Positions 225 through 4,284 of a stretch of DNA of 39,826 bases are shown one piece after another. A model generated the notes under the pieces. That model was not told the DNA's origin, did not search any database, and was given only the letters and a program-made list of their open reading frames with translations. The stretch spans positions 1 through 39,826 of the forward strand of contig JAOPZS010000126.1 in the NCBI GenBank assembly GCA_025963965.1, in the 5' to 3' direction. How positions within the stretch are numbered: position 1 is the stretch's first letter; every line of letters begins with the position of its first letter. Both the position numbers and the translations under genes were made by a program. The DNA is from Solirubrobacterales bacterium. Lineage in GTDB: Bacteria; Actinomycetota; Thermoleophilia; Solirubrobacterales; Solirubrobacteraceae.

Positions 225-656
225 ATGTCCCCCGCCGCCCCTTCCGCCCAGAGCAAGATCCGCGTGGTCGTCGCCAAGCCGGGCCTCGACGGCCACGACC
301 GCGGCGCCAAGATCATCGCGCGGGCGCTCCGCGACGCCGGCATGGAGGTGATCTACACCGGGCTGCACCAGACCCCGGAGCAGATCGTCGAGACGGTCAT
401 CCAGGAGGACGCCGACGCCGTCGGCCTTTCGATCCTTTCGGGCGCCCACATGACGCTTGTCCCGCGCGTCGTCGAGCTCCTGCACGAGCAGGGCGTCGAC
501 GACGTGCTCGTCACGGTGGGTGGCACGATTCCGGCCGAGGACATCCCCGAGCTCAAGAGCCTGGGGGTCGCCGAGGTCTTCACACCCGGTGCGCCCACTC
601 AGGCGATCGTGGATTTCATCCGCGGCGCCGCGGGGCGACGCGCCTCGAGCGCTTGA
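225..656 (+). CDS. Methylmalonyl-CoA mutase-type cobalamin-binding subunit
   Basis: This 143-residue protein is a stand-alone B12-binding domain of the methylmalonyl-CoA mutase small-subunit type. The hallmark D-x-H-x-x-G reads DGHDRG at residues 22-27, so His24 would be the lower axial ligand to cobalt. The later SGAHM (72-76) and VGG (98-100) segments form the rest of the cofactor pocket in this fold. It has no catalytic TIM-barrel domain, so it should work with a separate large subunit that is not in the window. Such pairs rearrange acyl-CoA skeletons, for example methylmalonyl-CoA to succinyl-CoA. The following etf genes fit acyl-CoA catabolism. The ATG at 225 was chosen because homology begins about ten residues later; its ribosome-binding site is weak. 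The exact substrate cannot be read from this subunit. Confidence 0.88.
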
Positions 657-1534: not shown

Positions 1535-2515
1535 ATGGCAAACATCCTGGTCTACGCGCTGCACTACGACGGCGCGATCAACAAGAACTCCCTGGGTGCC
1601 GTCTCCGAGGGCGCCAAGCTGGCCGCTGAGCTCGGCGGCGAGGCGCACGCGATCCTGCTCGGCGAGAACGTCCCGCAGGACCTCGCAGCATCGCTCGGCA
1701 AATACGGCGCCAAGAAGGTGCTCGTCGCCGAGGGGCCCGAGGGTCTGGCCCAGCCGCTCGTCGACGCGATGGCCAAGGCGATCACCGACGGGGGCTACAA
1801 GTACGCCCTGTTCGGCGGCGGTCTGCTCGGCTTCGAGATCGGAGCCGGCCTGGCCGCCCGTCTCGGCGCCGGCGTGGTCATGGAGGTCACGAACGTCCGA
1901 GCCGAGAACGGCGAGCTGATCGCCGAGCGCCCGATCCTCGGCGACTCGTCGATCTCCGAAGTCAAATACCGCTCCGAGGTGGGGATCGTGATCGGCCGCC
2001 TCAACGCATTCGAGATCAAGGACGCAGGCGGCGCCGACGCCGCGGTCGAGACGCTCAGCTTCGACCTGAGCCCGCAGTCCTCACAGGCGACGATGGTGAC
2101 GCGCGGCGAACAGCGCGGCGCCGACGTCGACATCGAGGGCGCCGACGTGCTGATCGCGGGCGGCCGCGGCCTCGGCAAGGCCGAGGGCTTCGAGCTCGCC
2201 GAGCAGCTCGCGGCGGCGTTCGGCGGCAACTCGGCCGTGGCGGCCACGCGCGCCGTGGTCGACGCCGGGTGGTACCCCTACGCAGCGCAGATCGGCCAGA
2301 CCGGCAAGACCGTCTCGCCGAAGCTGTACCTCGCCGCCGGCATCTCCGGGGCGATCCAGCACAAGGTCGGGATGCAGAGCTCGGAGAACATCGTCGCGAT
2401 CAACAAGGACGCCAACGCGCCGATCTTCGAATTCTCCGATCTCGGGATCGTCGGCGACCTGAACAAGATCCTGCCGAAGCTGACCGAAGCGGTGAAGGCC
2501 AAGAAGGGATCCTGA
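1535..2515 (+). CDS. etfA: Electron transfer flavoprotein alpha subunit
   Basis: This 326-residue protein is the FAD-binding partner of EtfB. The C-terminal half carries the family's FAD signature: VDAGWYPYAAQIGQTGKTV, then GISGAIQH, then AINKDANAPIF and the final GIVGDL. The ATG at 1535 was chosen over an in-frame start 60 bp upstream because it follows AAGGAG (1518-1523) and gives the normal N-terminus MANILVYALH; the longer form would overlap etfB. It lies 16 bp after etfB and only 2 bp before the quinone oxidoreductase, so the three genes form one electron-transfer operon. Confidence 0.95.
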   Translation: MANILVYALHYDGAINKNSLGAVSEGAKLAAELGGEAHAILLGENVPQDLAASLGKYGAKKVLVAEGPEGLAQPLVDAMAKAITDGGYKYALFGGGLLGFEIGAGLAARLGAGVVMEVTNVRAENGELIAERPILGDSSISEVKYRSEVGIVIGRLNAFEIKDAGGADAAVETLSFDLSPQSSQATMVTRGEQRGADVDIEGADVLIAGGRGLGKAEGFELAEQLAAAFGGNSAVAATRAVVDAGWYPYAAQIGQTGKTVSPKLYLAAGISGAIQHKVGMQSSENIVAINKDANAPIFEFSDLGIVGDLNKILPKLTEAVKAKKGS

Positions 2516-2517
2516 GC

Positions 2518-4284
2518 ATGTCCTCCAACGGCTCCAGCAACCACTCATCTCGGGGGGCGGGCGGGAAGGTCGCACCCGCCGCCTTCCCGCCCCCGGTCGA
2601 CTCGCAGAAGGAGTTCATCAAGCGCGGCCTCGACGACGAGGACGAGCTGATCGAGGTCGGCGTGGCGATCATCGGCGGCGGCACCGCGGGGCTGGCCTGT
2701 GCGAACCGCCTGCTGCAGCTGCTGGCCGAGGACCCGGAGACGATGGAGCGCCTGGGGGAAGTCCCCGTGGCGGTCGTCGAGAAGGCCAAGACCTGCGGCG
2801 GGCACAACCTGTCCGGAGCCGTGATGCGCCCCGGGGCGCTGCAGGAGCTGTTTCCGGACCTGAGCCGGGAGGACTGGCGCAAGGAGGGCTTCGCGTTCGG
2901 CGAGGTCAAGAAGGAGGCCGTCTACATGACGCCGACCTCCAAGATCAAGCTGCGCATCCCGCCGCCGCCGCCGTTCAAGAACCACGGCAACGAGGTGATC
3001 TCGGTCTCCGCGCTGGCACGCTTCCAGCAGCGCCAGGCCGAAGAGGGCGGCGCCTACGTCCTCACCGAGACGGCGGCGACGCAGCTCGTCGTCGAGGACG
3101 GCCGCGTCGTCGGCGTGCGCTCGGGCGACAAGGGCAGGGGCAAGGACGGGGAGCCGCTCGGCAACTTCGAGCCCGGCACCGACATCAAGGCGAAGGCCAC
3201 GGTCCTCGCCGAGGGTTGCTGGGGGCATCTGACCGGCGCTGCGATCAAGGAGTTCGATCTCGCCGAGGGACGCGAGCCGCAGGTCTGGGAGCTCGGCGTC
3301 AAGGAGGTCTGGAAGGTTCCCAAGCCGCTCGACCGCCTGATTCACACGATCGGCCCCTGGCCGCTGAAGATCTCCTCGAAGTACGGGCAGATCGGCGGTA
3401 CCTGGATCTACCCGATGAAGGACGAGAAGACCGGTGAGGACCTTGTCTCGATCGGCTTCGTGGTCGACCTCGAGTACGCCGACGCGACGACCTCCGCGCA
3501 CGACCTGCTGCAGCAGTTCAAGATGCACCCGCTCGTCAAGGGCATCCTCGAGGGCGGCGAGCGCGTGGCCTGGGGGGCGAAGGCGCTGCCCGGCGGCGGC
3601 TACTGGTCGATGCCGAAGCTGACGATGCCCGGCGCGCTGCTCGTCGGCGACGCCGGCGGGATGGTCGACACTGTCGCCCTGAAGGGCGTGCACCACTCGA
3701 TCATGTCCGGCAAACTGGCCGCCGAGTCGATCTACGCGGCGCTGAAGCGCGGCGAGAGCAACTTCGAGTCATACGAGCAGGTGATCGAGGACTCGCAGGT
3801 CGGCAAGGAGCTCTACGAGGTGCGCAACACGCGCCAGCCGTTCCAGCGCGGATTCCTGCAGGGCGGCCCGATCGTGAACCTGGCGATCGCGACCAAAGGG
3901 CTGCTGCCGCCCGGCCGGCTGTCCTGGCACCGCAACGACGCGAAGCCGATGTTCATCGGCAAGACCAAGGACAGCTATCCCAAGCCCGACGGCAAATACA
4001 CCTTCGACAAGCTCTCGTCGGTGTTCATCACCGGCAACGCGACGCGAGACGACGCGCCGAACCACATCAGGCTGCAGAAACACGTGCCGCGCGAGATCGC
4101 CGAAACGTGGCGCTGGATGTGTCCGGCCGGTGTCTACGAGATCCCGGAGGACGCTCCCGAGCACGGCGAGGTCGACGTGATTGTCAACTACACGAACTGC
4201 ATCCAGTGCGGTGCGATCACGGCCAAGGGGGGACGCCTGACGACGCCCGAGGGCGGCGACGGGCCGCTCTACCAGGTGACCTGA
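2518..4284 (+). CDS. Electron transfer flavoprotein:quinone oxidoreductase (ETF-QO)
   Basis: This 588-residue membrane-associated flavoprotein takes electrons from reduced ETF and passes them to the quinone pool. The FAD-binding loop GGGTAG is at residues 53-58, followed by a family-typical GGHNLSGAVM. The C-terminal domain normally binds a [4Fe-4S] cluster through four cysteines. Here Cys535, Cys561 and Cys564 are in place with canonical spacing, but the fourth position is Ile567 (codon 4216-4218), so a standard cluster looks unlikely. The start at 2518 follows the etfA stop directly; an upstream in-frame start would run through etfA. Family membership is secure; whether it handles electrons in the usual two-cofactor way is open. 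Confidence 0.93.
   Translation: MSSNGSSNHSSRGAGGKVAPAAFPPPVDSQKEFIKRGLDDEDELIEVGVAIIGGGTAGLACANRLLQLLAEDPETMERLGEVPVAVVEKAKTCGGHNLSGAVMRPGALQELFPDLSREDWRKEGFAFGEVKKEAVYMTPTSKIKLRIPPPPPFKNHGNEVISVSALARFQQRQAEEGGAYVLTETAATQLVVEDGRVVGVRSGDKGRGKDGEPLGNFEPGTDIKAKATVLAEGCWGHLTGAAIKEFDLAEGREPQVWELGVKEVWKVPKPLDRLIHTIGPWPLKISSKYGQIGGTWIYPMKDEKTGEDLVSIGFVVDLEYADATTSAHDLLQQFKMHPLVKGILEGGERVAWGAKALPGGGYWSMPKLTMPGALLVGDAGGMVDTVALKGVHHSIMSGKLAAESIYAALKRGESNFESYEQVIEDSQVGKELYEVRNTRQPFQRGFLQGGPIVNLAIATKGLLPPGRLSWHRNDAKPMFIGKTKDSYPKPDGKYTFDKLSSVFITGNATRDDAPNHIRLQKHVPREIAETWRWMCPAGVYEIPEDAPEHGEVDVIVNYTNCIQCGAITAKGGRLTTPEGGDGPLYQVT

What the first reader, a model, noticed from the sequence alone, without database searches (positions are those of the whole stretch)
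4120..4284. ETF-QO lacks one of four Fe-S cluster cysteines
In characterised ETF-QO proteins the cluster is held by C-(x24)-C-x2-C-x2-C. Here Cys535, Cys561 and Cys564 are in register, but residue 567 is Ile (ATC at 4216-4218), in CIQCGAI. The rest of the protein, including the FAD loop, is normal. The enzyme may carry a three-cysteine cluster, use another ligand, or work with FAD alone, which would change the electron route from ETF to quinone.
Basis: partly seen in the sequence, partly recalled or inferred. Interest (0 to 1): 0.52.

Follow-up and report, generated by a model that had tools for sequence, protein, structure and literature searches.

The report
Lineage-wide three-cysteine ETF-quinone oxidoreductase
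A respiratory enzyme that passes electrons from fat breakdown to the membrane has, in one large group of soil bacteria, stably swapped one of the four cysteines that hold its iron-sulfur cluster for isoleucine, so it probably carries an unusual three-cysteine cluster.

Summary
The window encodes an ETF:quinone oxidoreductase (2518-4284, +, 588 aa) directly after etfB and etfA. Cys535, Cys561 and Cys564 match cluster cysteines of porcine ETF-QO (2GMH); the fourth position is Ile567 (ATC, 4216-4218). It is not an error, decay or a shifted cysteine. Among 131 distinct relatives of this type, residue 567 is Ile in 130 and Thr in 1; the three cysteines are kept in 130, 131 and 131; residues 560-574 are the most conserved block of the protein. 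No other cysteine is universal. Eight four-cysteine ETF-QOs lie on the other side of one branch in both trees. Within the phylum the exact motif turned up only in the window's class. So this is an old, fixed variant, not a peculiarity of one genome. Strict conservation of three cysteines argues that a cluster is kept and against 'FAD alone'. Its type is undecided: I lean to a native [3Fe-4S] cluster, since E. coli SdhB and FrdB have Ile or Val at the same C-x-x-[I/V] spacing. A [4Fe-4S] cluster with a non-cysteine fourth ligand is nearly as likely. Other phyla could not be surveyed.

The parts
2518..4284 (+). etf-qo gene: ETF:quinone oxidoreductase, 588 aa; three-cysteine type
   Evidence: translation; Pfam ETFQO_UQ-bd 76.1 bits and Fer4_ETF_QO 52.7 bits, both over cut-off; best PDB sequence match 2GMH E 5.3e-91; best fold match 2gmh, TM 0.78
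4120..4122 (+). Cys535 codon, first cluster cysteine
   Evidence: Cys in 130 of 131 distinct three-Cys proteins
4198..4200 (+). Cys561 codon
   Evidence: 131 of 131
4207..4209 (+). Cys564 codon
   Evidence: 131 of 131
4216..4218 (+). Ile567 codon ATC, in place of the fourth cluster cysteine
   Evidence: Ile in 130 of 131, Thr in 1; codons ATC, ATT, ATA
4195..4239 (+). residues 560-574 (NC[VI]QCGAI[TN]AKGGRL), the most conserved block of the protein in this lineage
   Evidence: mean column identity 0.99, 73% of positions at 99% or more, against 17% for residues 24-588
3991..4275 (+). Fer4_ETF_QO (PF05187) domain, the only match in this genome
727..1518 (+). etfB, ETF beta subunit
   Evidence: Pfam ETF
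1535..2515 (+). etfA, ETF alpha subunit (from the first Met of the mechanical ORF 1475-2515)
   Evidence: Pfam ETF and ETF_alpha; order etfB-etfA-etf-qo in 59 of 72 testable loci

Best explanation
This is a genuine ETF:quinone oxidoreductase of a lineage in which the fourth cluster cysteine is fixed as isoleucine. It most likely keeps a cubane-type iron-sulfur cluster on Cys535, Cys561 and Cys564, and that cluster is most likely a native [3Fe-4S](1+/0), because isoleucine cannot bind iron and no replacement cysteine exists. Proposed route: ETF semiquinone gives single electrons to the cluster and FAD, and reduced FAD reduces menaquinone. Shown here: the substitution, its conservation, the FAD and quinone domains, the etfBA linkage and menD in the genome. 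Inferred: that a cluster is bound, its type, its potential and the electron route. My estimate: a cluster on three cysteines about 0.85; [3Fe-4S] as its type about 0.45 to 0.5.
For: Three cysteines kept in 130, 131 and 131 of 131 distinct proteins and Ile567 in 130. Block 560-574 is the most conserved in the protein, 73% of positions at 99% or more against 17% overall. Codons at 567 and at the Cys positions vary synonymously. Trees: three-Cys (80 rows) and four-Cys (8 rows) separate by one change, support 86 with a FixC outgroup and 100 without FixC and without the cluster domain. Ile or Val at the same spacing in E. coli SdhB CHSIMNC and FrdB CTFVGYC; PMC8097209 (passages) says SDH and fumarate reductase hold a [3Fe-4S] centre and that it is native. 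The genome has menD (446 bits); MK-7(H4) is the major quinone of Conexibacter woesei and Solirubrobacter pauli (PMC3035278, passage).
Against: No metal, EPR or structural data. Three-Cys [4Fe-4S] clusters with another ligand are well known (PMC11138216, passages), and clade-specific Asp511 (conserved 1.00) or Thr568 (126 of 131) could serve. The AlphaFold model is weak just here (mean pLDDT 63 for 561-570, 46 for 571-580), so no geometry supports either type. In SdhB and FrdB the replaced position is the middle one of C-x-x-[I/V]-x-x-C; here it is the last of C-x-x-C-x-x-I, so the analogy is partial.
Confidence: 0.48

Rival explanations
1. A [4Fe-4S] cluster is kept on three cysteines, with the fourth iron bound by a non-cysteine side chain (Asp511, Thr568 or another) or by water or hydroxide.
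For: Such sites are common (Pyrococcus ferredoxin Asp, RirA non-protein ligand, LipA Ser: PMC11138216, passages; CyuA variant: PMC12647591, passages). Asp511 is conserved in the three-Cys proteins where four-Cys ones have Glu (7 of 8); Thr568 replaces an Asp found in 8 of 8.
Against: No clade-specific universal Cys or His; conserved His96, His276 and His516 are kept in 8 of 8 four-Cys proteins too, so they are not new ligands. Thr568 is Asn in 4 and Ser in 1.
Confidence: 0.38
2. The cluster has been lost; the protein works with FAD alone and the cysteines are structural or bind another metal.
For: One of four ligands is gone and four residues after the site are deleted.
Against: The three remaining cysteines are near-invariant in 131 proteins down to about 50% identity, and the block is the most conserved in the protein; after cluster loss they would be expected to drift.
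Confidence: 0.12
3. Sequencing or assembly error, or a decaying gene in one genome.
For: The genome is a draft of 147 contigs, 89.7% complete.
Against: The same motif occurs in independent isolates and metagenome assemblies, including complete genomes such as Paraconexibacter antarcticus (L081) and Conexibacter sp. DBS9H8 (L119); the frame is open over its whole length.
Confidence: 0.01

Closest known systems
Mitochondrial/proteobacterial ETF-QO (ETFDH; porcine structure 2GMH)
   Same: Whole length, FAD and quinone domains, three of four cluster cysteines; 2GMH is the best sequence match and best fold match, TM 0.78
   Different: Fourth cluster Cys is Ile; GAITAKGG in place of KTCDIKDP; 4-residue deletion after it; about 35-38% identity to four proteobacterial ones
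Four-Cys ETF-QO of family f8 in the same class (L142-L145)
   Same: Same class, same Pfam domain
   Different: Classic CxxCxxC kept; 35-39% identity; separate branch; extra cysteines before Cys535
FixC/FixX (EtfCX) quinone reductase of electron-bifurcating ETF (7KOE)
   Same: FAD domain homologous (7KOE chain C, E 7.7e-20)
   Different: FixX is a separate small ferredoxin with complete Cys motifs, not fused
SdhB/FrdB [3Fe-4S] site
   Same: Ile or Val at the C-x-x-X place of the absent cysteine
   Different: Not shown to be homologous; motif position differs; a resemblance only
Mycobacterial EtfD (ETF:menaquinone oxidoreductase)
   Same: Same overall task in Actinomycetota; also has a non-standard cluster where a Cys is replaced by Thr (PMC13083937, passages)
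   Different: Not homologous to ETF-QO; linear [3Fe-4S] and non-cubane clusters in CCG domains (same passages)

Membership tests
ETF-QO family | Fused Fer4_ETF_QO domain (PF05187) | tested here: met
   52.7 bits, cut-off 24
ETF-QO family | Quinone-binding domain (PF21162) and FAD domain | tested here: met
   PF21162 76.1 bits over cut-off; DAO and FAD_binding_2 over cut-off
ETF-QO family | ETF-QO fold | tested here: met
   AlphaFold model, mean pLDDT 80.1; top PDB match 2gmh, TM 0.78/0.79, rmsd 4.9
ETF-QO family | Gene beside the ETF subunit genes (usual, not obligatory; recalled) | tested here: met
   etfB-etfA-etf-qo in the window; 59 of 72 loci
Classic [4Fe-4S] ETF-QO | Four cluster cysteines C...CxxCxxC | tested here: not met
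   Fourth is Ile567; 0 of 131 three-Cys relatives have Cys there, 8 of 8 comparison proteins do
ETF-QO family | Oxidises ETF and reduces quinone | not testable with these tools
   needs enzyme assays
Native [3Fe-4S] proteins | Three Cys ligands and a non-ligating residue at the fourth place | tested here: met
   sequence only; compare SdhB, FrdB
Native [3Fe-4S] proteins | EPR signal near g 2.01 when oxidised, about 3 Fe | not testable with these tools
   needs purified protein
EtfD | CCG domains and membrane helices in one protein | tested here: not met
   the window protein has no CCG hit; the genome's only CCG hits lie in one 402-residue open frame beside an Fe-S protein

The most novel reading that the evidence does not exclude
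A whole class of menaquinone-using bacteria has rebuilt ETF-QO around a native three-cysteine [3Fe-4S] cluster, a natural ligand swap whose changed potential may suit electron delivery from ETF to low-potential menaquinone. It would be a natural experiment on what the ETF-QO cluster is for.
Probability: 0.4. Interest if true: 0.6.

Novelty: new variant of a known kind. Interest (0 to 1): 0.42.

Why it matters
ETF-QO is the textbook entry of fatty-acid and amino-acid electrons into the quinone pool, and its cluster is assumed to be a four-cysteine [4Fe-4S]. Automatic annotation (Pfam 'Fer4_ETF_QO ... 4Fe-4S') carries that assumption onto these proteins. A lineage that fixed Ile at one ligand lets one ask directly what the cluster does, which cofactor ETF reduces first, and whether cluster type follows quinone type (menaquinone against ubiquinone).

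Tried and rejected
Error or pseudogene: rejected, the motif is lineage-wide. Shifted or compensating cysteine: rejected; the next most frequent Cys columns are window positions 93 (99 of 131), 61 (90) and 234 (73), none universal. New His ligand: His96, His276 and His516 are also in the four-Cys proteins. A second, classic ETF-QO in the same genome: none; one PF05187 match. EtfD as an alternative route: the only CCG hits in this 90%-complete genome are two in one frame, next to a two-motif Fe-S protein, which looks like a succinate dehydrogenase or Hdr-type pair (recalled resemblance), not EtfD.

Led nowhere: a survey of other phyla. The single genome-contig scan kept 80 loci, all close kin, and the genome search accepts only genome handles as centre. 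The plasmid collection gave no relative at 60% identity or more (0 of 442 records; 0 of 37 with the C-terminal piece); the four fetched were all classic four-Cys. So 'confined to this class' holds only inside the phylum as sampled. Structure: the model's cluster region is too weak, and its coordinates were not among the files I could read, so no distances were measured. Literature: ten searches listed no paper, judged by title and start of abstract, about a three-Cys ETF-QO; most subscription papers are not held. A look-up by the PubMed id that I recalled for the 2GMH structure paper found nothing held; ETF-QO ligand mutagenesis is recalled only and not used as evidence.

Rows dropped before counts: of 196 loci, 18 were dropped (partial, with a stop, or FixC-like) gave no match. 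Of the dropped ETF-QO ones, L007, L022, L134, L140, L060 and L162 also read CxxCGAI; L053 reads CVQCGAT and then leaves the family sequence; L133 ends before the site. Loci from the genome search and genome contigs overlap; 160 three-Cys rows reduce to 131 distinct sequences. The trees used 80 of the 160 three-Cys rows, thinned at 85% identity.

Full report
Observation. The ORF 2518-4284 (+) encodes a 588-residue ETF:quinone oxidoreductase that starts two bases after the etfA stop. Pfam finds ETFQO_UQ-bd and Fer4_ETF_QO over their cut-offs; the best PDB sequence match is porcine ETF-QO 2GMH, E 5.3e-91. In that alignment the C-terminus is in register: CPAGVY with CPAGVY, NCIQCGAI with NCVHCKTC. 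Three cluster cysteines are present (535, 561, 564) and the fourth is Ile567, ATC at 4216-4218. The spacing Cys535-Cys561 is x25, not x24. That these four cysteines are the ligands in characterised ETF-QO is recalled, as in the finding; no call showed it.

Is it one genome's oddity? No. PF05187 matches were found in 57 of 61 genomes, the window's own included, of its close relatives. I extracted ETF-QO proteins from these, from the 80 loci of a genome-contig scan, from 61 genomes of the class, 55 with a match (further loci), and from four plasmids. In the alignment of 168 rows, window included, the four ligand positions read CCCI in 158, CCCC in 8, GCCI in 1 and CCCT in 1. The 160 rows without the fourth Cys are 131 distinct proteins: Cys535 in 130, Cys561 and Cys564 in 131, residue 567 Ile in 130 and Thr in 1. 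Identity of order- and class-level members to the window is mostly about 49-60%.

Selection. Residues 560-574 have mean column identity 0.99, with 73% of positions at 99% or more, against 17% for residues 24-588. Ile567 is written ATC 115, ATT 12 and ATA 3 times, and the cysteine codons also vary between TGC and TGT. So the site is held as protein and not merely through recent common descent.

Distribution. In the relatives and class samples, families f1-f5, f7 and f10 have the three-Cys form where a sequence was read; family f8 has four proteins with the classic CVHCKTC or CLHCKTC motif (L142-L145); the f6 and f9 matches that could be read are short FixX-like ferredoxins with complete Cys motifs. 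In a phylum sample 19 of 198 genomes matched PF05187: 16 belong to the class and 3 (G165, G196, G206) do not; those three are weak matches (30-36 bits), and the window's ETF-QO gave no tblastn match at 1e-20 in their loci. The exact motif as a DNA pattern occurs in 24 of 396 phylum genomes, all in the class; being exact it misses variants such as GAIN.

Tree. With 80 three-Cys, 8 four-Cys and 8 FixC rows, each group is one side of a branch; support for three-Cys against four-Cys is 86. Without FixC and without the C-terminal domain that carries the trait it is 100. The program warns of long branches, and with only 8 four-Cys rows the direction of change is inferred: loss of the cysteine is the natural reading, because the FixX-like relatives and all 8 other ETF-QOs have full motifs.

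Structure. An AlphaFold model from 53 sequences (the window and 52 of the 80 loci) has mean pLDDT 80.1 and pTM 0.85, but 561-570 is at 63 and 571-580 at 46. Its closest PDB structure is 2gmh, TM 0.78. The fold is thus supported, while the cluster geometry is not resolved.

Mechanism. Conservation of exactly the three remaining ligands is the strongest evidence that a cluster is kept. Isoleucine cannot bind iron. Two readings remain. First, a native [3Fe-4S]: E. coli SdhB has CHSIMNC and FrdB has CTFVGYC, with Ile or Val at the +3 place, and these enzymes hold a [3Fe-4S] centre, shown to be native in fumarate reductase (PMC8097209, passages; that this motif holds that centre is recalled). Second, a [4Fe-4S] with a non-Cys fourth ligand, of which there are many examples (PMC11138216, passages; PMC12647591, passages). 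Clade-specific candidates are Asp511 (conserved 1.00; Glu in 7 of 8 four-Cys proteins) and Thr568 (126 of 131; Asp in 8 of 8). I lean slightly to [3Fe-4S].

Quinone. The genome has menD (446 bits, cut-off 244.2) and no PF02621 match; MK-7(H4) is the major quinone in Conexibacter woesei and Solirubrobacter pauli (PMC3035278, passage). Menaquinone has a lower potential than ubiquinone (recalled), so tuning of the cluster to menaquinone is a possible reason, untested.

Role. ETF-QO is the only PF05187 protein in this genome, follows etfB and etfA, and that order holds in 59 of 72 loci with enough upstream sequence; the 13 exceptions lacked EtfA within 300 bases upstream. The genome's only CCG hits lie in one frame beside a two-motif Fe-S protein, so no EtfD was seen, in a 90%-complete draft.

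Verdict. A real, conserved variant of a known enzyme; cluster type open; no paper on it was found in ten searches of an incomplete library.

Noticed in passing
L142-L145 (family f8 genomes of the same class): These four classic ETF-QOs have three extra cysteines just before Cys535 (C-x3-C-x7-C-x3-C-PAGVY in L142), as in FixX; they may hold part of a second cluster.
   Followed up: partly
L058 (G003:C252, window's genus): The only member of the 131 with Thr instead of Ile at 567 (CVQCGATTAKGG); a second ETF-QO copy that groups with family f2 in the tree, perhaps contamination or transfer.
   Followed up: partly
L069: The only three-Cys protein that also lacks the first cysteine (Gly, GGC, at 535); could be an error or a further loss.
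   Followed up: no
L053 (G022:C194), L134: Likely broken copies: L053 leaves the family sequence right after CVQCGAT; L134 has an in-frame stop.
   Followed up: no
L071, L105, L110, L114, L139, L140, L141: Records titled Chlamydiae, Bifidobacterium breve or Bacillota carry ETF-QOs that belong with the Solirubrobacterales set; the titles are probably wrong.
   Followed up: partly
window 225-656: A 143-aa B12-binding-domain protein (Pfam B12-binding) lies directly before etfB; it resembles a stand-alone methylmalonyl-CoA mutase small domain (recalled).
   Followed up: no
L197 1318-3266 (G000:C16), - strand: A CCG-domain protein beside an Fe-S protein with CIQCGACVSDC and CTHCFKCVEACP motifs, perhaps an SdhE-type succinate dehydrogenase or Hdr-like pair.
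   Followed up: partly
L112, L118, L120, L121, L122, L127, L132, L134, L135, L138, L139, L141, L053: In these 13 of 72 loci EtfA is not found directly upstream of ETF-QO; 8 of them have EtfB only.
   Followed up: no
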